A stretch of DNA of 64,000 bases from Polytrichum commune (lineage: Eukaryota; Streptophyta; Polytrichopsida; Polytrichales; Polytrichaceae), in NCBI GenBank assembly GCA_950295325.1, contig OX485805.1:26523501-26587500 (forward strand). The letters are read 5' to 3'. Position numbers and translations under genes: made by a program. This document shows positions 234 through 48,672 of this stretch, piece after piece. Below the pieces are notes generated by a model that saw only the letters and a list, made by a program, of their open reading frames with translations, was not told where the DNA came from and made no database searches. Numbering within the stretch: position 1 is the first letter of the stretch; every line of letters starts with the position of its first letter.

Positions 234-3200
234 TCAGGGCTTGCGTTCTTGTGTGTCAGGTAGTTGTGGATGAGCGGCAACTTTCGATTGGCAGGTAGAT
301 TGTGATTCGTGTATCTCTGTCAAGGTGACCATATGTAGACTGCGGCGAAGACGTTCGAACCTGTCACGCGGTAATGCTTTCGTCATAATATCCGCAAGTT
401 GTTGGTCTGTTGATATATACAAAATGTCGATGTCGCCGCTTTCGAACTTTTCGCGAATGAAGTGATACTGAATGTCGATGTGCTTTGTCCGCTTATGGTA
501 TTCTGGATTCTTGACAAGCCGTATGGCACTCTGATTATCACCAAATAAAGGTGTTGGACCTGGTTGTGAGAACCCAATGCTTGTGAGTAGTCGGCGTAGC
601 CATACTGCTTCTTTGGTGGCCATGCAAGCGGCGATGTACTCAGCTTCTGTTGTCGATTGTGCAGTGCATTGTTGCGCTTTGGAACTCCAAGCAATGAGAC
701 TGGATCCGAGTTGGAATACGTACCCTGATCTGGATCGGCGAGAGTCAACATCTCCGCCGTAATCAGCATCACAGAAGCCTTGGAGATATGCAGTTGTTGA
801 GGTACGCGTATATAAAAGACCAAGATCTGATGTTCCTCTGAGGTAGCGTAGTATCCGTTTCACTGCTGTCCAATGTATTTGTCTGGGGTTTTCGCAAAAT
901 TTTGCGGCATGATTTACTGCATATGTTATATCTGGGCGTGTAAGTAAAGAGATGAACATTAAACAGCCTATAGCTTCTTTATAAGGAACTGTTAACGGCG
1001 TTGTGCTTTCTGATGGGTCAGGAACAATGGAGAGCGTGACATTTGGGTCTGCTGGAGTGCTGACAGTATAAGATTCGGCCATGCCGAAGCGCTCGAGTGT
1101 ATGTTGGATGTATCGATGTTGATGTAGGAAGGTAAGTCCTGCCTGTCGATTCTGATAGACTTCAAGACCAATATAATAGCCCATGTCTCCTCGGGTGATT
1201 TTGAAAACCCTGTCCAAATATTGCAATATATCTTCTAGCTTTGCTGCATTGGTTGAGGAAACGATACCATCATCGACAAAAATTCCCAGTATTGTTTCAA
1301 CCTTGTCTGGATGTGTGGTGTCTGTACTGTAATATACACAAGGGTCAGCTATGCTGGGTAGGAGATGAAATTGTTGCGCAAATTTGTCGAATGTCTTGTT
1401 CCAACGTCGCGCACTCTGCTTCAAACCATATAGGCTCTTAAGTAGAAGACATACATAAAGAGGCCATAGATCGTCTTGATAACCTTCAGGTTGTTCCATG
1501 AATATGATGTCGATAAGGTCAGCATTTAAATATGCTGTACAGACATCAAACTGGGCTGTAACCATTCCATGCGCATTACTGATTACAAAAACTGCTCTGA
1601 CTGCATCGTACTTTATAACTGGTGCATATGTTTCGGTGAAGTCAATACCAGCAACCTGAGAGAATCCTTTAGCAACGAGACGGGCTTTGAACCGTTCAAT
1701 CTCGCCAGAAGGTTTGTACTTGACCTTGTATATCCATTTGCACTTCACAGCTTTCCTGTCTGCAGGTAAGGGTTTCAGAACCCATGTTTTGTTGTTCAAT
1801 AAAGAGTTAAACTCTTTATCCATTGCTTCTTTCCATTGCTGAGCATGAGAGGACTGCATGGCTTCCTTGTACGTTTTAGGTTCAATGATCTGTGTTGATG
1901 ATGAAACAATGTATGCAGTGGAACCTGAATTGCTTTTATTGTTGTCATATTTAACCCAATCTCCATAACGAATGGGAGGTTGACGGGTTCTAGGTCTCAA
2001 AACAGAATCAGCAGGATCTGGCATGTTGTCACTCTCAATGTTGCTGCTCTCAGGAGGATCAGATGCACTGCTTGGTGTCGGGGATGATAAATCGGGAACA
2101 GGTAAAGTGACAAGAATCTCGTGATTATGGTCTGGAACAATCTCTCCCTGAGTATTGTCAATTTCCTCTCCCTGATGATGTGTAACAGTGTCTTCCCGAT
2201 TATGTTGAGTAAGCTCTCCCTGAATAAGTGTATTATTGTCTCCCTGAGAATGAGCAGTAGTCACACCTTGTATATTCTGATTTGTCTCTCCCTGATGAAA
2301 TGCTTCCATATTGTTGAATAATGGATATGTAGTATCAGCGTCAGAGTGAGCAGCATCATCTTGATGATCTTGTTGGTCATGAGCATTTGGATTGTCGTGA
2401 GGATGAGAATTTTCACTTACAAAAGGTAGACTGATACTTTGATTGTCTTGTTGATGCATATGTGGTGCAACTGGTGCTGCTGCGGTTGCTGGGATAACCT
2501 GCTGTTGTGAATAAGGTAATCCTATGATACTCAAATCTGATTCAGTAGAAGAGGATATGTAGTCCTTGGTGATAGTACCAAGTGTTTCATGAATGACTAC
2601 ATCTGTTCCAATATGGATGCGTTTTGTCTTAGGCTGCCATAATCTGTATGCTCTCCCTTTCTGGTCGTATCCCACAAAAATTAGTTTCCGACTTTTGGGT
2701 TCTAACTTGCTTCTCTGTTTCTTGGGTATGTGCAAGTATGCATCACTACCAAAAACTCTGAAGTAAGACACATCTGGGATCTGTCTGAACATTCGTTCAT
2801 AAGGAGTACGATCCGATCGTTGGGGACTGATGGTGCGATTCCAGATATGAACTGCTGTACTGGCTGCCTCAGCCCACAAACTGAGAGGTAAGTCCTTTGA
2901 ATGCAGCATGCTTCTTGTGGCTTCAACTATTGTTCTGTTGTTGCGTTCAATGTATCCATTCTGCTCTGATGAATATGGTGCTGAAAACTCATGAATAATC
3001 CCCTTCTCTTGTGTATAATCTTCAAATTGTTGACTCTTGAACTCTCCTCCTTGATCTGTTTTAATCTTTTGAATGTCAACATGAAGCTCTTGCTTCATCA
3101 TTGAATAGAGCTGTTTGATATAGATGAGAGCTTCTGATTTTGTCTTTAGAAAGAAAATAACCATATAGCCTGTGTTATTGTCTTTGCAAAGCATAAAATA

Positions 3201-4841
3201 AGATGCACCACCGAAAGAAGTAGTGCTCATAGGTCCACATAGGTCTATGTGGAAATACGTACCGGGTATGGAGTTTCTTTCCTTCTCTGTTAGGGCTGGA
3301 TATGTAATTCTGTGTTGTTTTCCTAGTATACAGCCTTCGCAAAAAAACTTGGTAGTCTTGTTATCTTTGATGGACATACCTTGAACTGCATGTTCTGTTT
3401 GGCGTAGAGCTTGTGTGTTAATGTGACAGAATCTGTGATGCCACATCTCGATAGAATCCTTGTGTATATCTCCCGGCTGGCTGGTTTCCCCTATATGTGG
3501 TTCAGGCGCTTCAGTGGAGACATGGTAAGCATGTGATGTTGCATTGTCTTGAATAATTGCTTTCATTTGAAGTTTGTACAAGCTGCTCCCTGTTCTTATA
3601 CCTGTAAGTATAATCTCTCCTTCGCCGTTATCTGCAATCATTTGACAGACATTCTTTCTGTATATGGTAATGATACCACGGTCTGCAGCCCTGCCAATAG
3701 AAAATAGATTTGTTCGCAGTTCTGGAATGTATAAGACATTATGTAAAATACCATCCAGCCATTGATTGTGAGCTCTTCGTTTTATTCTGATATTGCCTTT
3801 GCCTTGCACCCACAGGCTCTGCTCATTAGCAATGGCTACTGGCCATGTCCCCTTAGGGATTTCTTGAAAATCAATGAAGGCAGCACGATTGTCGGACATG
3901 TGTTCGGTGGCGCCTGCATCAGCATACCACACCTCATGAGTGTTGTCTTGTGCTAACACTGCTTCTGATATTGAGGTAAACAACATTGACTGTGTAACCA
4001 GTGCTATTGTATCTCTTGTTTCTGTAATCCTTGCTGCACTCTTGCTTGACTCTGGTCTTCGTTGTCCATATTGCCTGTTGTCCTTTCTTGAACACACATT
4101 GTCTTGCCACCAGTGTCCCAACTCTCCGCAGTTGTGACATCTGGATTTCCTTTTCAATTCCTTAATGCGCTCATTGTTATACTTGCTGTCTGCATCAGTT
4201 CGTCTGTGCTCTTCTCTCCTGTTGCGTATTAACAATGCACTGTCATGCTCTTCATTCTCTCTGTTGTTCAGCATTTTGTTCATTGCTTCTTCTTCGAACA
4301 CTCGCATAATTAAAGTCTTCCTTGTCTTCTGCTCCGCCGGCATGCTCTTCCATGCGGTAAGTACATGACGATACTCACTTGGTAGGCTAGTTATCAATTT
4401 ACTGATGATCTGCTCTTCAGACATCTTCTGGCCAATGTCTTCTAAATTCCGTGCCATCATTTCTATCTTAGCAACATGTGTAGCGATAGAATCTCCTTTG
4501 TTGTACTTATAATCAACAAATTGCTGAATCAGCATAAACATACTCTCTGCAGAAACCTGTTCATGAATGGACACTAACCGTTCCCACATCTCTGCAGATG
4601 TTTTACAGTTAATTATCGTGCCGAGATGCTCCATATCGACAGCTGTGGTAATGATCCACTTAGCAAGGTTGTCCTTCTTCCTCCAGGCATCCTTGTCTTC
4701 AGCATCTTCACATTTCTCTGTTCCATTAACGATGGTGAAGATATCACGTCCATCGAGCGCGATACGAAGCTGATGCTTCCACAGGTTGAACTGCTTCCCT
4801 GTAAACTTGAAAACAGCTCCTATTCCTCCCTCTTTTTCCAT
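234..4841 (-). CDS. Copia gag-pol polyprotein, 1535 aa, intact
   Basis: This is one open frame of 1535 residues that makes capsid, protease, integrase, reverse transcriptase and RNase H for copy-and-paste transposition. The gag domain (UBN2-like) spans about 10-200. A zinc knuckle has Cys235, Cys238, His243 and Cys250, so the last spacing is six residues instead of the usual four. The protease motif YADAGATEH has Asp308, with Ala where DSG is usual. Integrase has an HHCC finger at about 468-504 and acidic residues Asp533, Asp596 (KTDQGGEF) and Glu632. Reverse transcriptase spans about 1015-1260, with FDVCTAYLNA (Asp1099) and FVDD (1188-1191). RNase H spans about 1355-1500, with FCDADYGG and GDNQSA. 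A Gln/His/Asp-rich linker (about 750-950) with recurring QGE/QGD units separates integrase from reverse transcriptase. No stop or frameshift interrupts it. The first Met fits the family gag start. Confidence 0.95.
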   Translation of the reverse strand: MEKEGGIGAVFKFTGKQFNLWKHQLRIALDGRDIFTIVNGTEKCEDAEDKDAWRKKDNLAKWIITTAVDMEHLGTIINCKTSAEMWERLVSIHEQVSAESMFMLIQQFVDYKYNKGDSIATHVAKIEMMARNLEDIGQKMSEEQIISKLITSLPSEYRHVLTAWKSMPAEQKTRKTLIMRVFEEEAMNKMLNNRENEEHDSALLIRNRREEHRRTDADSKYNNERIKELKRKSRCHNCGELGHWWQDNVCSRKDNRQYGQRRPESSKSAARITETRDTIALVTQSMLFTSISEAVLAQDNTHEVWYADAGATEHMSDNRAAFIDFQEIPKGTWPVAIANEQSLWVQGKGNIRIKRRAHNQWLDGILHNVLYIPELRTNLFSIGRAADRGIITIYRKNVCQMIADNGEGEIILTGIRTGSSLYKLQMKAIIQDNATSHAYHVSTEAPEPHIGETSQPGDIHKDSIEMWHHRFCHINTQALRQTEHAVQGMSIKDNKTTKFFCEGCILGKQHRITYPALTEKERNSIPGTYFHIDLCGPMSTTSFGGASYFMLCKDNNTGYMVIFFLKTKSEALIYIKQLYSMMKQELHVDIQKIKTDQGGEFKSQQFEDYTQEKGIIHEFSAPYSSEQNGYIERNNRTIVEATRSMLHSKDLPLSLWAEAASTAVHIWNRTISPQRSDRTPYERMFRQIPDVSYFRVFGSDAYLHIPKKQRSKLEPKSRKLIFVGYDQKGRAYRLWQPKTKRIHIGTDVVIHETLGTITKDYISSSTESDLSIIGLPYSQQQVIPATAAAPVAPHMHQQDNQSISLPFVSENSHPHDNPNAHDQQDHQDDAAHSDADTTYPLFNNMEAFHQGETNQNIQGVTTAHSQGDNNTLIQGELTQHNREDTVTHHQGEEIDNTQGEIVPDHNHEILVTLPVPDLSSPTPSSASDPPESSNIESDNMPDPADSVLRPRTRQPPIRYGDWVKYDNNKSNSGSTAYIVSSSTQIIEPKTYKEAMQSSHAQQWKEAMDKEFNSLLNNKTWVLKPLPADRKAVKCKWIYKVKYKPSGEIERFKARLVAKGFSQVAGIDFTETYAPVIKYDAVRAVFVISNAHGMVTAQFDVCTAYLNADLIDIIFMEQPEGYQDDLWPLYVCLLLKSLYGLKQSARRWNKTFDKFAQQFHLLPSIADPCVYYSTDTTHPDKVETILGIFVDDGIVSSTNAAKLEDILQYLDRVFKITRGDMGYYIGLEVYQNRQAGLTFLHQHRYIQHTLERFGMAESYTVSTPADPNVTLSIVPDPSESTTPLTVPYKEAIGCLMFISLLTRPDITYAVNHAAKFCENPRQIHWTAVKRILRYLRGTSDLGLLYTRTSTTAYLQGFCDADYGGDVDSRRSRSGYVFQLGSSLIAWSSKAQQCTAQSTTEAEYIAACMATKEAVWLRRLLTSIGFSQPGPTPLFGDNQSAIRLVKNPEYHKRTKHIDIQYHFIREKFESGDIDILYISTDQQLADIMTKALPRDRFERLRRSLHMVTLTEIHESQSTCQSKVAAHPQLPDTQERKP
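2130..2320 (-). repeat. degenerate internal repeat in the Copia linker
   Basis: The plus strand shows the unit tctccctga recurring about every 35-40 bases, which encodes repeated QGE/QGD motifs on the minus strand. It lies in the low-complexity linker between integrase and reverse transcriptase. Such linkers are usually poorly conserved, so this is probably replication slippage without a known function. Confidence 0.6.
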
Positions 4842-4903
4842 TATTGCATCTCTCTTTTTGTTGTTTCAAATAAACCTTTGAGTCTTTGCTAATCAATAGC
4901 GGT

Positions 4904-4917
4904 GTGGGCCCATAACC
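4904..4917 (-). promoter_or_regulatory. primer binding site, internal (half-tRNA) initiator-Met type
   Basis: The plus strand reads GTGGGCCCATAACC, which is identical over 14 bases to the anticodon stem-loop region of plant initiator tRNA-Met as I know it. The RNA of this minus-strand element would therefore pair with an internal tRNA segment and not with the 3' CCA end. The site starts three bases inside the presumed LTR end (4921). Drosophila copia is the classical case of priming by a 5' half of initiator tRNA-Met, whereas most plant Copia elements use the tRNA 3' end. The match is seen directly; use as primer is inferred. Confidence 0.75.
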
Positions 4918-5102
4918 TTTTGACACAATAGGTTTAGCAAACAAATGAACAGACAATAGTAAAAGAGTAATAACAGTTTATTACGAAACAAGAATATACA
5001 CTTGATTTCTGTCACTGTAATTAACACTAGAAAACTATCCTGCTTGATCTCTATCTCTCCATGTACAACTGAAACAACTAACTACTAAACAATTGGTTCA
5101 CC

Positions 5103-5109
5103 CTTATAT
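5103..5109 (-). promoter_or_regulatory. TATA box in the Copia LTR
   Basis: The minus strand reads CATATAAGGG here, about 60 bases downstream of the heat-shock-type element and about 180 bases before the inner LTR end. This is the expected place for the U3/R boundary promoter of a Copia LTR. Confidence 0.5.
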
Positions 5110-5168
5110 GTGCAGGTGATGGAAACCTCTAGAAGACACCTATAGAGCTTCCTGAGAGGCAAAGTGAC

Positions 5169-5181
5169 GAAGCTTCTAGAA
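5169..5181 (-). promoter_or_regulatory. heat-shock element (three perfect units) in the Copia LTR
   Basis: The minus strand reads TTCTAGAAGCTTC, a perfect TTCnnGAAnnTTC array of three alternating heat-shock factor units. It lies upstream of the LTR TATA box in transcription direction. Heat-activated Copia elements such as Arabidopsis ONSEN carry elements of this kind in their LTR. Heat induction here is an inference. Confidence 0.6.
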
Positions 5182-5262
5182 AATAGTATTTCATATAATA
5201 GTAAGTAGTAAGTTACTATTAGGACTCTACAAGTAAACAACACTTCATTATTTGCATTATAC

Positions 5263-5512
5263 TAATAGTCTCCTGGTTACGCAGGATCTCGTCCTTGGTG
5301 ATGGTCTTTTTGGTAGCCCGGTCCACCGCCTCCCTCAAACCTCCCGGTCCCCCACTTGTTGCATCGCACCTAACCACCCTGCAGCCTGCAGGAAGCATCG
5401 AGGTTCCCACCCCACGGCCGGAGCTTACCTTGGGGTTAATCCTAAGAAGACTGCCCCCAAGTCCAAGCTGCTTGGCTGCACTACCCATCATCACCATGCT
5501 TGTAGCTGCCAT
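5263..5512 (-). CDS. plastid-targeted protein, first exon only (possibly ELIP-like)
   Basis: From ATG at 5512 the frame reads MAATSMVMMGSAAKQ..., an N-terminus rich in Ala, Ser, Met and Arg with few acidic residues, like a chloroplast transit peptide. After about 50 residues come Cys-Asp and a Gly/Arg stretch, then the block ending KDEILRNQET. That ending recalls the segment before the first membrane helix of early light-inducible-type thylakoid proteins, but I cannot confirm the family. The exon probably ends at 5263 with GT at 5262-5261; after that the frame runs into the Copia LTR. Later exons would lie beyond the retrotransposon, off the window. The frame stays open upstream to 5959, but the TATA box and the good ATG context favour 5512. 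Either the gene is split by an intronic insertion or it is broken. Confidence 0.55.
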
Positions 5513-5699
5513 TGCAACACAAACCAAGTCCACACAAGACTTGGTGTATCTTCGATCGGCAAGTTGGTGTCGCCTCTCTTCGATTTCCTCGAACAAACTA
5601 CAATACCAATCTACGGAAACTACTGTGAAGTTTTGTGCTGAAGGCTGTACTGAATTGACGAATGCGTCTGATACTGAATCAGCCCTGGCTAACTGAGGC

Positions 5700-5714
5700 T
5701 TTATATAAGTTATC
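5700..5714 (-). promoter_or_regulatory. TATA box and GATAA motif of the plastid protein gene
   Basis: The minus strand reads GATAACTTATATAAAG. The TATATAAA box is about 190 bases upstream of the start codon at 5512, and the adjoining GATAAC resembles the I-box of light-regulated plant promoters. This supports 5512 as the start and a 5' leader of roughly 160 bases. Confidence 0.5.
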
Positions 5715-6120
5715 TCTACTTGATGCGGAGGGGAGTCGTCCGGTGAGGAATGTGAGCGTGGGGATTGCCATGGGGTGCCATGTGGGCAGGAAAATTTGGA
5801 AAGGAAACCCTTAAAGGTGCATGAGTGGGGGCTTTCCAGGTTGAGGATTGCGGCAGTGTCCATGTGGTGGGATTTCACCTTGAGTTTTGAATGTGCCGCT
5901 CTCTTCTCTTCTTTCCTCAGGTTGCATGGTGCGGTGTGTCGCCGATCTGCTGCATGCACAGGAAGCTAGCTCCTTTCTAGCCAGCTTTCATGCGTCCGTC
6001 CCCTTCGCCCAACACATACTTAGGAAGTTGGAGACGCGCCACTGCATTATCTAGGAAGGGTGTAGATGATACTCCTGGCGAGAGCTGTACATCTACCACT
6101 ACACATCTTCCCAAGTCCTC
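5715..6120. other. upstream region of the plastid protein gene
   Basis: This is gene-free sequence upstream of the minus-strand plastid gene. At about 6019-6118 it contains a weak copy of the small repeat seen at 7218-7530 (shared ctagga...gtagatg and gtacat segments). Nothing else recognisable. Confidence 0.4.
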
Positions 6121-6122
6121 TA

Positions 6123-6541
6123 AGGTAGAAATACCATAACCCATTAACCACCCTCTAGCCGTGCACTAGACCGTCGTCATAATGGTGAAGTGCCATTTCT
6201 AAAACCGATCATGGCTCAGTGGCAACTATAATGCGTGTACACTTAGTGTAGCCAATGGGAGTCGTGTGTTAATGTACTCATGAGGTAACCGATTTAGGCA
6301 TTGTTTTGTATGGAAATGAGGATTACCATGTTCGGTGTAGGGAGAATCTAGTGAACGAGTAGGGGTTTGGTCAACTTTCCACTTTGAAAAATTGTAGCAA
6401 TTTTTGTATAGGGCAAAAAATTATGAAACAAATTGCATTCTTCATGAATCTTCTCGTCTATCTTGGAAAATTATCTCATGATTCTCAGACGAGATCTTCA
6501 ATGCGAATCATTTTTTCTCATGGGTTATGGTATTTCTACCT
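6123..6541 (+). mobile_element. TA-flanked MITE, copy A (419 bp)
   Basis: The ends are near-perfect inverted repeats: AGGTAGAAATACCATAACCCA at the left is matched by its complement at the right. TA dinucleotides lie directly outside at 6121-6122 and 6542-6543, as for Tc1/mariner-derived (Stowaway-like) MITEs. There is no coding capacity. Copies B (6617-7058) and C (36201-36622) share both ends and much of the interior. Confidence 0.85.
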
Positions 6542-6616: not shown

Positions 6617-7058
6617 AGGTAGAGATACCATAAACCGTGAACTACCCTCTACCCGTGCAGTAGACTTCTGTCAGAATAGTGAAGTGTCATTTTTGAAACC
6701 GATCATTGCGAGGCTGACAGCTTGAATGCGTGTAAAGTTAGTTTAGCCAAATTTAATCATGTTTGACTATCATCAATCACAGTTTAATGTACTCATGAGT
6801 TCAATGGTTTAGGCTAGGTGATGTTGGGTGTGGAAATGAGGATTACCGTGTTCGGTGTAGTGTAGTGAATGAGTAGGGGGTTTGACAAACTTTCCACTTT
6901 GAAATGTTGTAGAATTTTTATTACATGGAATAAAAATATGAAAAAACTTGCATTCTTCGTGAATCCTTCTCTTCTACCTTGGAAAAGTATCTCATGATTT
7001 TGAGACCATATCTTCAATGCGAATCACCTTATTTTCACAGTTGATGGTATCTCTACCT
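6617..7058 (+). mobile_element. TA-flanked MITE, copy B (442 bp)
   Basis: This is a second, more diverged copy in the same orientation as copy A. Its ends are AGGTAGAGATACCAT and the complement, with TA at 6615-6616 and 7059-7060. The interior shares blocks such as ccgtgca.tagac and gtgtagtgaatgag. It lies only 75 bases from copy A. Confidence 0.8.
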
Positions 7059-7060
7059 TA

Positions 7061-26547: not shown

Positions 26548-26960
26548 TTAGAGCATCCGCACCCCTGCTCTCTATCCACCACTCATCAAAGGGCCAGTAG
26601 AGGGAACCACAAGGGTTTAGGGACTCGCCAAAAATGACGACCCCCACTCTTGCTCCATAAATATGCAGAGCAGTCCCGAATAGATGGCCGGCTGACGCGA
26701 TCCTTATGCGTTGGCCCAGTGTCGTTGTCAGAGGGTTAGGTATTTGCCACGTCTTCGCTGCCACGGTAGCACTTTAGAGTTTTCCCGCTGAGTTGGCAGG
26801 TGATGTGGCCGGGTGAACGGGGAGCTGCAGGGGCTGCGAGCTCTCCCACAGAGACTGTCACAGAGGCTGCGAGCTAACTGTCTGCTCTTCAAGCAGGTTT
26901 TCATTTGTTTGCTTTGATAGTCCCACACGGTTTCACATGTGTTTTTTTGTAGTTGATAGT

Positions 26961-27806
26961 ATGGATCAATGGCGGGAACGCCTTCTTGCCACTCGGGAGC
27001 TCTTTTTGGAGGACGATGAGGAAGATGATTTCAATGTTAATTGGATTATTGGATTAGGTTTGAGTGCACCGCGTGGTCAAATACCGAGCATTGTCCGTGG
27101 ATCACGTCCAGGGAAATCGCCCAACATTGATAGGCATAGACACGAGATGCATGCCCGCATGATGTTTGATTATTTTGCAGATGAACCGGTGTATGGCCCA
27201 AACTTTTTCCGCCGTCGATACCGTATGCGGAGGTCATTATTTTTTACCATATTGGATAGGGTTTGTGCTAGAGACGATTATTTTCTTCATAAAATAGATG
27301 CATGTGGTTTTTTAGGGTTGTCCCCTCATCAGAAGATCACATCCGCTTTGAGGATGTTATGTTACGGGTTGTGTGCCGATGCTACAGATGGATATTGCAG
27401 GACTAGTGAAACCACCGCGATGACATCTATGAAGCGATTTTGCATTGCAATTAGGGTTGAGTTCGAGGCTTATCATATGAGACAACCTACACGTGCCAAT
27501 TTTGATAAACAGTTGGCAATTAATGATGACCGTGGATTTCCAGGCATGTTTGCCTCACTTGACTGTATGCATTACGAGTGGAAGAATTGCCCGGTGGCTT
27601 GGCAAGGGGATTTCGGTGACAAAGATGGGAAGAAGTCCATCATATTGGAGGCCGTGGCGGATGGTGGTTTGCACATATGGCATGCGTTTTTTGGGTTGCC
27701 CGGTTCCAACAACGACTTGAACGTGTTGGATCGGTCACCGCTCATCCACAACATGTTGACTAGCCATGTGAATAATGTCGGATTCTTTACTACCACTTTT
27801 GTTTAA
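26961..27806 (+). CDS. PIF/Harbinger transposase (DDE_4/ALP1-like), C-terminally truncated, 281 aa
   Basis: The protein starts MDQWRERLLATRELF (an upstream in-frame ATG at 26937 would add eight residues). It carries the family blocks RRRYRMRRSLFFTILDRV, the helix-turn-helix-like region around GLSPHQKITSALRML, and the catalytic segment with Asp201 in ASLDCMH and Asp252 in PGSNNDLNVLDRSP. The third catalytic acidic residue normally lies some tens of residues later, in an IYPEW-type motif. Here the frame ends after about 30 further residues without it. The family length is usually around 400, so about a quarter is missing. It is unlikely to cut DNA by itself, although the N-terminal half may still bind the ends. 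Confidence 0.88.
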   Translation: MDQWRERLLATRELFLEDDEEDDFNVNWIIGLGLSAPRGQIPSIVRGSRPGKSPNIDRHRHEMHARMMFDYFADEPVYGPNFFRRRYRMRRSLFFTILDRVCARDDYFLHKIDACGFLGLSPHQKITSALRMLCYGLCADATDGYCRTSETTAMTSMKRFCIAIRVEFEAYHMRQPTRANFDKQLAINDDRGFPGMFASLDCMHYEWKNCPVAWQGDFGDKDGKKSIILEAVADGGLHIWHAFFGLPGSNNDLNVLDRSPLIHNMLTSHVNNVGFFTTTFV

Positions 27807-36198: not shown

Positions 36199-36200
36199 TA

Positions 36201-36622
36201 AGGTAGAAATACCATAACCTGTGAAAATAAGGTGAATTGCATTGAAGATCTGGTCTGACAATCATGGGATAATTTTCCAAGATAGACGAGAAGGATTCAT
36301 GAAGAAATGCAGGTTGTTTCATATTTTTCTGCCTTGTACAAAATATTCCACAATTTTCAAAGTGGAAAGTTTGTCGAACTCCCTACTCATTCACTAGATT
36401 CTCCCTACACCGAACACGGTAATCTGCATTTCCCTACAGAACATCGCCTAAATCGGTTACCTCATGAGTACATTTACACTTGACACCCCTTGGCTACACT
36501 AAGTGTGCAAGCATTGAAGTTGCCGCCGAGCCATGATCCGTTTCAGTAATGGCACTTCACCATTATGATGGCGGTCTAGTGCACGGCTAGAGGATGGTTA
36601 ACCGCTTATGGTATTTCTACCT
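36201..36622 (-). mobile_element. TA-flanked MITE, copy C (422 bp), inverted
   Basis: Ends AGGTAGAAATACCATAACC and the complement, TA at 36199-36200 and 36623-36624. The interior is the reverse complement of copy A, for example the block around gcacggctagag against ctctagccgtgc. It lies 30 kb from copies A and B. Confidence 0.85.
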
Positions 36623-36624
36623 TA

Positions 36625-37690
36625 CATGGTTTGCCATCAATATGATTTGAATTGGAACTGTAAAATCAACTTCAAGATATATCAGGGCATAGCTGCACTT
36701 GCTCTTTAGCTAACAACATCCATGTTAGCTAGTCTAACGTGCATGTTGCCTAACAATGCCTTAATTGGTTCCACACTTGAGCTTTTGACATAATTGACCT
36801 TGTAGTTGACTATTGGAGTCAGTTTTGTTTTCTTCTTCTTTATGTTGGGTAATGTTTATATTTATTTTATTTTATTGTTATATTTTATGCTTTCTTTATA
36901 AAATGTATGCCACATTTTGGTGGGAGGAATGCATTCCATGGACTCGACCAAATGACCAGATTGAGTTCAACCATAATTATGTAAAATAAAATGTTGGAGA
37001 GAATGTGGCATGGGCTGAAATTGCCAGTTCTTGGTAGCAAACCATGCACAATTCACATGTGAGAACTAGCACAAGTCTTTCTACAAATTTCTCAAGATTG
37101 AAGTGGCAGGTAAGAGATACTTGATGAAGGGAGAGAGAGAATGTTTGTCAAGATTGCTGAACTTATGTGTGCTTTTAAATCACACAAGAGTCGGAGTCTA
37201 CCAATCTCACTTTCAATTAGCTTCGAACTAACATATTGAGCGACTCTAACCCCTAGTGTTTGTTATTGCAATATGTGTGTGGCACAATTTGTCCAAGGAC
37301 GATAAAGCCATAATATGTGGTCTACATTGCTCGTCGTTGTTGCACGTGCAGACAACTTTCTTGGGTTCCTGCACACATCATAAATAAATAGACACTTTCA
37401 AATATGTGCAAGAACTTGGATTTTTCAGTCATCTCACAACATATATCAACATATGGAATCGGAAATCAAGATGATTGGCATACACATGTATGAGTTTGCT
37501 CCACATACCACAAACACATTTGTAATTCATTCTCTAAGTCCCTTGTGATCTGATCCAAGCACTATATTCACCTCTTGCTATCCTAAACCCAAATTGGACT
37601 AAAAACAGGTAACTCTACGCAACAAGCTCCAGGCACACCCATAGTTTAGTTGAAGACTTGATCCTGTCATAATGTCACGAAGAATGGTAA
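36625..37690. other. gene-free stretch
   Basis: AT-rich, CpG-poor DNA between the MITE and the first repeat module. No convincing gene. Confidence 0.4.
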
Positions 37691-45347: not shown

Positions 45348-48300
45348 ATGGCTGCTGGCGTTGAAGAGGCCAGTACTTCGTCCGAGTCTCCACCTGCCGA
45401 AAGGCAACGAAGGTATACTTTGATTCATTCCTGTTTGAATGCAATTTATTCAGTGAACCTCAAATTTGGGGTTATATTGAGATTTATGGTTGATTATCTA
45501 ACAATCTAGGATATGATTGACGAGGAGGCTATGCTATCAATCAAGTGAGTCTTGGTTTCCTAGGTCTTGGTGAGAAGTGTGAAATTGTGATTTAACAGGA
45601 CAGACAGTGGCCCATGTGGGCTTGAGAAGAAACACAAGGTGTTCTTGAGCCACAATGGCGCAGACAAGGCTTTTGTGAGCCATCTGTGTCATCGCCTAAT
45701 TTCAGTGCATCACTACCCTTTCTTCGACGTGCGCGAGGACAGCTTGCCACTAGGAGATAAGTTTGCAGACATCATCTTTCAAGCTAGCAAACAATGTCGG
45801 TTGGCAATTGTTGTAGTCTCGGACGATTACTTTAAGAGCAAGTGGCCCATGTTGGAGTTGGCTTCTTTTGTGGAGGCCAAGGATGGTGTCAACCCTGAGT
45901 TGAAGATTTTGCCACTGTTTTATAGAATGACAGTGGCTGAGTTCAAAGAGCCTGAACGACAAAGGGTTTGGTTTGAGAAGTGGAAGATGCTGAAAGAGTC
46001 TGACGAACGTTTGGACATTTTGAGCTGGGAGAATGCATTGAGGGTTTTGGGTGGACATAAAGGCATTGTGTATTGCAGAACTCGACAGACTGAAGATGAG
46101 TACATCGAGAGTATAGTAGAATCGGTGTTCAGATCTGTTCCTCCAGATGTTTTATATGATGATTCTCATGTGAAAGGTGGCACGCATTTGTGTGAAGTAA
46201 GTAACACAGTTTGAGATTTTCTGGAATATGATTTCTTAGTTGACTAGAAAATTTGTTTCGTTTCAGTTGCTTTGAAGTATGTTGATGAACATGTTACTGG
46301 TCCATCATTGAGTGTGCACATATCCAACATGCCATCTCAAAGTGGATAATCTAGTGAGCACTCATCTTATTTTAACTGTGTGTCATATTATGTGGGACAG
46401 GATATCGATGCAATTTTCAAGGAGTCCAAGGGATCCAGGCCGACGGGGATGGTGCAATGTCCAATCATTGGCATTTATGGCCTGGGTGGCATTGGAAAAA
46501 CCAACCTCTGCCAAATTGCTTACAATAAGTTTGCTGGAGAGTTTTTTGGAAGGGCATGTCTCATAGAGATCAGAAGCAAAACCAAAAGCTCTCTTGAATC
46601 ACAAAAAGAAGTGTTGAGAGCTTTGACGGGTGCACATGATGAACTCCTCAACTCCGTCACAGATGTTGACAAGGTATTGTGAATTACTAGGTCACTGACT
46701 TATCTCGCATGGTCATAATTTGATTTTGGCAGGGCTTTGTAATAGAGGGAATTCGTTTTCATCAATGTGTGGAGCTTGTTACCTGAAACCCTTTGTGTTG
46801 TGTAGGGGCGACGCCTATACAAGGAGAGAGTTGGAAGCCATAAGGTGTTTCTAGCGATTGACAATGTTTGGGATGACCCTGCATCTCTTGAAGAAGCTAA
46901 TGGTTATCTAACTAATGAACTCCATCCGGAGAGCAAAGTAGTAGTGACGGCACGATGCAAGGAAACTTTGAGAAACTTGGATATTGAGGAAGAATGTTGC
47001 TTTGAGATGCCTGATCTTAGGGAGGAGGATGCCATGGGCCTATTCTTGCACCATGCGTGTCTTAGCCCCTCAACCATTAAACTTGCAAATCCCAAGCATC
47101 TTAAAGTTGTTAGGGATTGCATCTCTTATGCTCGGTACTCCAAAAGAGGGGACACAGAAATGTCTCGTGCATACCACTTTCATCCTTTGGCATTGAAAGT
47201 TCTAGGGTTGTTCATGAAGACATTGACACCCTTCCCAAGCAATTGGATTGAGAAGCTTAACAATCCAAAGATTTTGGGAACCAAAACGAAAGATGTTAAT
47301 TTAGTTTTGCGGACAAGTTTCGACATGCTCCCAGAAGATGATCATAGAGCCATGTTTCTAGATGTGGCTATATATGCACCCAAACAATATCATTACCTTT
47401 ATGGCGAGGGCAAAGTACCAAGAGTGGAAGAAGTGTGTGAGTGGTTGAGCATCGTGTATGCACAAGAAATCGAGGTTGTCAAGGATAAGGTGAGTTCACT
47501 AAGCATGTGTGACGACGCATTTATTGTGTACTTCCCACCGTTTAGATAGAAAAATGCAATGTAAGGAATGGCTAGTTGATAGTGGTCTAGGATGTCTTTT
47601 GTTTTACATAAATGATTAGAGAAATGCTCTTTAGGATCGAGAGGTAGCCTAGTTCTGGCATCTAGAGATTGAACACATATATGACAATCTATAGATAGAA
47701 TTTATCGTTTTAGTACTCAACACTAATTTGTTTGGGGTGTAGTTGGAGGTTCTCAGTGCTCGAGGTCTTTTGAACCAATGGGATGACCTCACAAAATTTA
47801 TCAGCATGCATGACCTTTACTTGGAATTTGCTGAAGCAGAAGTGAAGAGAGACGACAATGAGCGGGGACGAACTCATTTGTATCACAAGAATGAAAATAA
47901 CATACCAAAATGCCTTACGAGGAATCCGAGGGGGGCCAAATCATTTCCTTTTGAAAGGATGCGATTCAACAATGTGTGTAATCTTGAAATCTTCAAGCAA
48001 GCCAAATTGGATAAGTGTGCAAATGTTGAAGTACTTAAGGTGGACCATTGTTATGGATTGCAAAGCTTGGACCTAGATGGCCTTGAAGAATTACGCAGCC
48101 TGGAGTTGATCAAGTGTCCAAACTTGGAATATCTTCAAGGGTTGGAGAATCGAGATAAGCTCGTCTGGATGAGATGGGATAATGCCAAAGTTGTGGATTA
48201 CAAACCATTGACATCCCTGCGAGTGCTTCAATTGGTAGGGATATCTCACACCATAGCAATCGATCTTCAAAATTGCCATAATCTTCACGAACTGGCAATT

Positions 48301-48672
48301 TGGAAGTCATATTTGGAGGACTTTCCCCTATTTCCAAATTCCAAGAGCATGCGCAAGATTCGCTTCAGATATTGTAAGAAACTGAGACATCGTGGACCAG
48401 AACTTCTCAACCTCGAGGGATGGATAAATGTGGAGTTTCTTGATCTGACACAGTGCAAGTCTCTCACAAATGAATTGGAAAGTTGCCCCATCATGAAGAA
48501 CTTGAAACATTTGGATGTATCAAATTGCGATAAGCTGAAAGCTTTGCCTGACCTCACGAAGTCCAAGAATTTCATGACCTTACATGTCTGGTGGTGTTAT
48601 GAGTTGTTCAAGACTTATGCTTCTTCAAGCCAATTTTCAGATTCAATGCTATGGACCTCCATGTTGGCCTAA
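45348..48672 (+). CDS. TIR-NBS-LRR immune receptor-type gene, about 849 aa
   Basis: Exons are 45348-45412, 45599-46196, 46401-46673, 46806-47489 and 47743-48672, with one frame and GT/AG borders. The TIR domain (about 34-190) has HKVFLSHNGADK, a BB-loop (FDVREDSLPLGDKF) and the likely NADase Glu in SKWPMLELASF. The NB-ARC has the P-loop GLGGIGKT (248-255), kinase-2 KVFLAIDNVWDD (325-336), KVVVTAR (RNBS-B), HPLALKVLG (GLPL variant) and MHDL (562-564). A short irregular LRR region (about 600-840) follows. TIR makes NAD-derived signals and NB-ARC acts as the ATP switch in plant immunity. An extra exon starting at 46267, joined from a donor at 46201 and reading IALKYVDEHVTGPSLSVH, is possible, but I could not close its 3' end in frame. 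The last frame ends in SDSMLWTSMLA; a shifted frame stays open to 48766, so the C-terminus may be shortened. Confidence 0.9.

What the first reader, a model, noticed from the sequence alone, without database searches (positions are those of the whole stretch)
5100..5181. Perfect three-unit heat-shock element upstream of the TATA box in a Copia LTR
TTCTAGAAGCTTC (minus strand, 5181-5169) fits TTCnnGAAnnTTC at all nine fixed positions and sits about 60 bases upstream of a TATA box inside the 5' LTR. A chance match in a 320-base LTR is unlikely. Together with an intact gag-pol frame this suggests a heat-inducible, possibly still active element, comparable in logic to Arabidopsis ONSEN but in a different lineage.
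Basis: partly seen in the sequence, partly recalled or inferred. Interest (0 to 1): 0.7.

Follow-up and report, generated by a model that had tools for sequence, protein, structure and literature searches.

The report
Heat-shock motif in a Copia LTR
A plant jumping gene carries, just ahead of its own start signal, the DNA switch that plants use to turn genes on in heat, so it may wake up during heat stress; similar switches are known from other jumping genes, but this one seems to belong to a rarer, differently primed branch.

Summary
The motif is real. TTCTAGAAGCTTC (5181-5169, minus) fits TTCnnGAAnnTTC at all nine fixed positions, 60 bases upstream of TATAAGG, in the 5' LTR of a Copia element with an unbroken 1535-codon gag-pol frame. 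59 of 20,000 dinucleotide shuffles of the LTR hold a perfect match. A one-mismatch site lies nearer the TATA box. Two things change the picture. (1) The primer-binding site, GGTTATGGGCCCAC, is complementary to the anticodon arm of initiator tRNA-Met (tRNA letters recalled): half-tRNA priming, reported among plant Copia elements only for Osser, Bryco and part of Gymco-II (PMC6317226, passages). (2) The element seems to sit inside a host gene in the same orientation, so read-through can mimic induction. The 3' LTR is off the window and no family copy could be reached: conservation of the motif and heat induction are untested. Verdict: a credible candidate heat-responsive LTR, a known trick in what looks like an uncommon Copia lineage. 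New member of a known kind.

The parts
5169..5181 (-). Perfect three-unit heat-shock element TTCTAGAAGCTTC (3P type)
   Evidence: 0 mismatches; shuffles; unit positions
5122..5134 (-). Second, imperfect HSE TTCTAGAGGTTTC (middle unit GAG), 13 bases upstream of the TATA box
   Evidence: 1 mismatch; 11 of 13 bases equal to the first site; as a repeat it is not beyond chance (350 of 1000 shuffles have a self-match as good)
5141..5151 (-). GAAGCTCTATA, one mismatch from the HSE-like motif GAAGYTCTAGA printed for heat-induced Physcomitrella promoters; weak
   Evidence: 4 hits at one mismatch in the window, none exact; motif from PMC7073223 section 9
5102..5108 (-). TATA box TATAAGG of the LTR promoter
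4921..5267 (-). 5' LTR; 3' edge placed at TGTCA before the primer site, 5' edge at GAGAC/TATTAG (5268/5267) or at the first TG after it (5256); both edges placed by eye, no second LTR to compare
   Evidence: no second copy in the window
4977..4982 (-). AATAAA, likely polyadenylation signal in the LTR
4904..4917 (-). Primer-binding site GGTTATGGGCCCAC, complement of bases 26-39 of plant initiator tRNA-Met (half-tRNA type)
   Evidence: tRNA letters recalled, not fetched; form extended by ACC: 1 match, 0.00 expected from 100 shuffles
234..4841 (-). Intact Copia gag-pol frame: gag, pre-integrase, integrase core, SH3-like and reverse transcriptase domains, RNase H motifs
   Evidence: Pfam PF14223, PF22936, PF13976, PF00665, PF25597, PF07727; motifs, RNase H by motif only
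5268..5512 (-). Apparently interrupted host gene: ATG at 5512, 81 codons and two bases to the junction; plastid-protein-like N-terminus (by eye); same orientation as the element
   Evidence: no Pfam match; gene identity not established
5700..5707 (-). TATATAAA of the presumed host promoter, upstream of the element in the same direction

Best explanation
The upstream part (U3) of this Copia 5' LTR is a heat-responsive promoter. In heat, a trimer of a host class A heat-shock factor would bind the three alternating units at 5181-5169, possibly helped by the imperfect site at 5134-5122 next to the TATA box, and drive gag-pol RNA from a start near 5075. That RNA would be packaged and reverse-transcribed from a half molecule of initiator tRNA-Met bound at 4917-4904. 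Shown here: the motifs, their spacing, the open frame and the primer site. Inferred: factor binding, heat induction, start site and current mobility.
For: Perfect motif at a promoter position, 60 bases above TATAAGG. Rare by chance in this LTR: 59 of 20,000 shuffles; with another site at one mismatch or less, 18 of 20,000 (the joint criterion was set after seeing the data). The window has 28 sites at 0-1 mismatch, and this is the only pair within 60 bases that includes a perfect one. In seven Brassicaceae, heat response of Copia families correlated with putative high-affinity elements in the LTR; COPIA37 with 3P elements rose about 5-fold in A. thaliana and up to 25-fold in A. lyrata (PMC5059998, abstract and sections 6-7). 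The intact frame with RT, integrase and RNase H motifs means that RNA could matter.
Against: One LTR of one copy only; no family copies, 3' LTR, RNA or binding data. The other perfect HSE of the window (6441-6453) lies 734 bases upstream of the presumed host TATA box, with no promoter shown there, so perfect matches may occur idly. The near-repeat of the two LTR sites is not beyond chance (350 of 1000 shuffles), so an ONSEN-like duplication history is not supported. CHG sites are at the window's usual level (8; 99 of 184 tiles have 8 or fewer) although CG is low (2; 20 of 184 tiles have 2 or fewer), so silencing could override the motif. The protease reads D-A-G-A where D-S/T-G is usual (recalled), and the zinc knuckle has 6 residues between H and the last C, so this copy may not be fully competent.
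Confidence: 0.5

Rival explanations
1. Chance match: the 13-mer has no role, and the LTR promoter responds to other signals or is silent.
For: Window-wide the motif is not enriched (2 found, 0.92 expected; 22 of 100 shuffles reach 2). 2 of 182 tiles carry one. A CGTCA (TGACG) box at 5169-5165, a bZIP half-site by recalled knowledge, overlaps the HSE by one base and could be the working element.
Against: Rare inside this LTR (59 of 20,000 shuffles), placed at promoter distance, with an imperfect second site between it and the TATA box.
Confidence: 0.33
2. Read-through: RNA of this copy comes mainly from the promoter of the host gene that it interrupts, which points the same way; any stress response seen in RNA data would be the host gene's.
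For: The frame from ATG 5512 runs to the junction near 5268 and on into the LTR until a stop; TATATAAA at 5707, same strand. The window's other perfect HSE, 6441-6453, lies 734 bases upstream of that TATA box, so the host gene might itself be heat-responsive. A moss Copia solo LTR was found to be transcribed by read-through from a stress-induced gene and could have been misread as induced (PMC7466625, passages).
Against: The LTR has its own TATA box and poly(A) signal. Read-through would not explain a perfect HSE in the LTR.
Confidence: 0.12
3. The sites are a stress-responsive enhancer for a factor other than HSF (wounding, oxidative or pathogen stress), as in tobacco Tnt1/Tto1 (recalled).
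For: Two similar 13-mers and an overlapping CGTCA box.
Against: The letters fit the HSF consensus at 9 of 9 positions. No motif library was searched; only a few hand-picked boxes were looked for, so this is weakly tested.
Confidence: 0.05

Closest known systems
ONSEN / COPIA78 (Arabidopsis and relatives)
   Same: Copia element with alternating nGAAn units in an AT-rich LTR; ONSEN's HRE is bound by HSFA2 in vitro and its activation needs HSFA1 genes (PMC3907296, passages)
   Different: ONSEN has a 4P plus a gap element and no CG or CHG sites in the LTR; here 3P plus one imperfect site, 2 CG and 8 CHG, and a half-tRNA primer site
COPIA37 and TERESTRA / Alesia.FAM.7 (Brassicaceae)
   Same: Independently gained HREs in Copia LTRs; COPIA37 with 3P elements is induced about 5- to 25-fold (PMC5059998, section 7); Alesia.FAM.7 is also commonly inserted in coding sequences (PMC10881000, passages)
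   Different: Flowering-plant elements; Alesia.FAM.7's primer site is described as complementary to methionine tRNA, with no half-tRNA type mentioned in the passages seen
Drosophila copia
   Same: [quoted passage not shown] The only solved-structure matches to this gag are two sequences named 'Copia VLP protein' (8vvw, E 9.9e-17; 8s41, E 6.3e-13; that they are the fly's is recalled). Half-tRNA-iMet priming (recalled)
   Different: Animal element; lacks at least three more nGAAn copies needed for high affinity, and is transcribed without heat
Bryco, Osser, Gymco-II (half-tRNA-Met plant Copia lineages)
   Same: Primer site complementary to half tRNA-Met (PMC6317226, passages)
   Different: No heat response is described for them in the passages seen; phylogenetic placement not tested here

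Membership tests
Heat-responsive Copia elements of the ONSEN kind (way of working) | Three or more adjacent alternating nGAAn units in the LTR, upstream of its promoter | tested here: met
   3 perfect units at 5181-5169, 60 bases above TATAAGG
Heat-responsive Copia elements of the ONSEN kind (way of working) | Transcript raised by heat | not testable with these tools
   no RNA data
Heat-responsive Copia elements of the ONSEN kind (way of working) | Bound by a heat-shock factor | not testable with these tools
   no binding data
Heat-responsive Copia elements of the ONSEN kind (way of working) | HRE kept in heat-responsive full-length copies | tested here: inconclusive
   no genome held; no relative in viral contigs or genome contigs; no second LTR in the window
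ONSEN / COPIA78 family | 4P heat-responsive element | tested here: not met
   3 perfect units only; no GAA or TTC starts at 5186 or 5166, the next in-phase places
[quoted passage not shown]
   2 CG and 8 CHG in 347 bases, one-strand count
ONSEN / COPIA78 family | RT nucleotide identity above 80% | not tested
   no ONSEN sequence fetched
Ty1/copia superfamily | gag, then integrase before reverse transcriptase and RNase H in one frame | tested here: met
   (RNase H by motif only)
Half-tRNA-Met plant Copia lineages (Bryco, Osser, Gymco-II) | Primer site complementary to half tRNA-Met | tested here: met
   14-base exact complement to bases 26-39 of a recalled plant initiator tRNA; no 3'-end site TGGTATCAGA within 2 mismatches in 4840-4990
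Half-tRNA-Met plant Copia lineages (Bryco, Osser, Gymco-II) | Clusters with one of them in INT/RT/RH trees | not testable with these tools
   no reference Copia pol proteins reachable (one search gave none)

The most novel reading that the evidence does not exclude
A half-tRNA-primed Copia lineage of a non-flowering plant, probably a moss, has on its own acquired a heat-shock-factor-driven LTR promoter, repeating the ONSEN strategy outside flowering plants and in the same priming class as fly copia, and this copy has landed in a host gene that its LTRs could bring under heat control.
Probability: 0.3. Interest if true: 0.6.

Novelty: new member of a known kind. Interest (0 to 1): 0.4.

Why it matters
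If true it shows that capture of heat-shock elements by LTRs recurs across distant Copia lineages and perhaps across land plants, which makes the gain of stress switches a testable general route by which retrotransposons escape silencing. If the host is a moss it would give a heat-triggered Copia in a group where the expressed Copia families looked weakly expressed (Physcomitrium RLC4 and tRLC5; passages of PMC7466625).

Tried and rejected
Plasmid records gave no match to window 4500-5500. Reverse-transcriptase pieces gave no relatives in viral contigs or genome contigs, and an exact 23-base LTR stretch gave none in viral contigs. No second LTR or solo LTR was found in the window, and the first 240 bases do not match the 5' LTR. 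Solved structures helped with gag only, not with the RT part. Rfam at gathering thresholds and ARAGORN found nothing in the window. A moss genome paper on heat (PMC10619864, passages) had nothing on Copia or on heat-shock elements.

Considered and dropped: that the two HSE-like sites are a duplication as in ONSEN (350 of 1000 shuffles have a self-match as good); that the motif equals the moss heat-promoter motif as printed (GAAGYTCTAGA has no exact hit in the window; the perfect site differs from it by one inserted T). Host taxon: a TIR-domain ORF near a leucine-rich-repeat ORF at 45639-48672 argues against a grass (recalled: grasses lack TIR-NBS-LRR genes); the primer type favours moss or gymnosperm, or alga (Osser as algal is recalled); neither settles it.

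Full report
What is there. On the minus strand, a Copia element fills the left end of the window. Reading in its own direction: host sequence down to about 5268; a 5' LTR of about 347 bases (5267-4921, or 5256-4921 if it starts at the first TG; edges placed by eye); a primer-binding site at 4917-4904; a single gag-pol frame 4841-234 of 1535 codons. The 3' LTR is outside the window: the first 240 bases have no match to the 5' LTR beyond chance. Pfam finds copia-type gag, the beta-barrel and pre-integrase domains, integrase core, the SH3-like domain and RVT_2 reverse transcriptase in the Copia order. Catalytic-type motifs of integrase, reverse transcriptase and RNase H are present; the protease reads DAGA and the zinc knuckle has a longer last spacing than usual (usual forms recalled), which may or may not matter.

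The motif. TTCTAGAAGCTTC lies at 5181-5169 minus with all nine fixed positions right. TATAAGG is at 5108-5102, leaving 60 bases between, and AATAAA is at 4982-4977, so the HSE is where an upstream promoter element should be. A second site, TTCTAGAGGTTTC at 5134-5122, has one mismatch in its middle unit and stands 13 bases above the TATA box. A wheat survey calls such mismatched sites non-canonical; it found that canonical sites more often come with a heat response, but that response size was comparable for both (PMC7010933, passages including the abstract).

Chance. Over the window the consensus occurs twice with 0.92 expected, and 22 of 100 shuffles reach two, so there is no window-wide enrichment. 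In 4921-5270, 59 of 20,000 dinucleotide-preserving shuffles have a perfect match, and in 5101-5270, 24 of 20,000; a perfect match plus another site at one mismatch or less occurs in 18 and 11 of 20,000. The joint test was framed after seeing the data. Of 182 tiles of 350 bases in the window, 2 hold a perfect match. The best ungapped self-match within the upstream part is the pair of HSE-like sites, but 350 of 1000 shuffles have one as good, so I do not claim a duplication.

The primer site. GGTTATGGGCCCAC at 4917-4904 is an exact 14-base complement of bases 26-39 (anticodon arm) of plant initiator tRNA-Met; no 3'-end type site (TGGTATCAGA, up to 2 mismatches) lies in 4840-4990 (the tRNA letters are recalled, not fetched). 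The string extended by ACC has one match in the window and none in 100 shuffles. In a survey of 5410 plant Copia elements, half-tRNA primers were reported exclusively for Osser, Bryco and Gymco-II (tRNA-Met; only part of Gymco-II) and Bianca (tRNA-Ile), Bryco and Gymco being groups of relatively few elements from moss and gymnosperms (PMC6317226, passages). By this feature the element is not one of the common flowering-plant lineages. The gag's only solved-structure relatives are two sequences named Copia VLP protein, weak evidence because few Copia capsids are solved.

The surroundings. The frame that starts at ATG 5512 (MAATSM..., plastid-targeted in appearance) runs 81 codons and two bases to the junction near 5268 and then on into LTR sequence and a stop; TATATAAA lies at 5707 on the same strand. 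I read this as an insertion into the coding part of a host gene in the same orientation, without proof, because the other side and the target duplication are off the window and the junction is placed by eye. It matters in two ways: the host gene is probably broken by this copy, and host-promoter read-through can mimic induction of the element. That risk was described for a moss Copia solo LTR (PMC7466625, passages). The window's only other perfect HSE (6441-6453) lies 734 bases upstream of the host TATA box, so the host gene itself could be heat-responsive; I have not tested that. Elsewhere an ORF with a TIR domain and a nearby one with leucine-rich repeats make a grass host unlikely; a moss is my best guess, not shown.

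How it most likely works. Heat frees class A HSFs, which bind three alternating units as a trimer; the LTR promoter then fires. In Brassicaceae, 4P elements went with 185- to 976-fold induction of ONSEN and 3P elements with about 5- to 25-fold induction of COPIA37; species with only gap or step elements showed little or none, though some heat-responsive COPIA37 copies had only such elements, and Boechera TERESTRA rose strongly with a cluster that a strict reading calls a gap element (PMC5059998, sections 6-7). Here there is one 3P element and one imperfect site, so a moderate response is the prediction. Moss can read such signals: a soybean small-HSP promoter is heat-activated in Physcomitrella, and 49 of the top 100 genes of its heat module share an HSE-like promoter motif (PMC7073223, passages and section 9). 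The printed moss motif has no exact match here; one LTR site (5151-5141) differs by one base, as do 3 other places in the window.

Against it. ONSEN's LTR lacks CG and CHG sites (PMC3907296, passages); this one has 2 CG, low for the window (20 of 184 tiles have 2 or fewer), and 8 CHG, usual (99 of 184 have 8 or fewer). One CG begins at the last base of the HSE, 5169. So the silencing-evasion half of the ONSEN strategy is at best partly matched. No copy of the family, no RNA and no binding data could be reached.

Novelty. HSEs in Copia LTRs are known from several Brassicaceae families, and heat response with heat-shock consensus sequences from Drosophila copia (as told in PMC3907296). In the listings of my ten library searches I saw no heat-responsive half-tRNA-primed plant Copia; the listings are capped, only openly licensed papers are held, only joined half-tRNA with heat terms, and I opened eight papers, in passages or sections. 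In Physcomitrium a Gypsy family, RLG2, is heat-induced. I therefore file this as a new member of a known kind, with a lineage twist worth testing.

Noticed in passing
4904-4917 (-): Half-tRNA-Met primer-binding site, a type reported in plants only for Osser, Bryco and part of Gymco-II Copia elements.
   Followed up: yes
5268-5707 (-): Plastid-protein-like host gene with its own TATA box, apparently cut in its coding sequence by the element in the same orientation; no Pfam match.
   Followed up: partly
45639-48672 (+): ORFs with a TIR domain and leucine-rich repeats, with an ORF between that looks NB-like by eye but has no Pfam match: a TIR-NBS-LRR-like gene. 19 of the 20 repeat families shown (of 32) lie between 34 and 64 kb, at 61-96% identity, so the region is heavily duplicated.
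   Followed up: partly
26937-27806 (+): ORF matching Pfam Plant_tran (PF04827), a plant DNA-transposon protein.
   Followed up: no
6441-6453 (+): The only other perfect three-unit HSE of the window, at the end of an 89-base direct repeat (6362-6450) whose second copy (6877-6965) has no perfect match; 734 bases upstream of the presumed host TATA box.
   Followed up: partly
6112-6439 with 36306-36633; 6953-7060 with 36199-36306: Inverted dispersed repeat, arms 84% and 88% complementary, 29-30 kb apart.
   Followed up: no
gag-pol motifs beginning at 3920 and 4139 (-): Protease motif DAGA and zinc knuckle CX2CX4HX6C depart from the usual D-S/T-G and CX2CX4HX4C forms (usual forms recalled).
   Followed up: no
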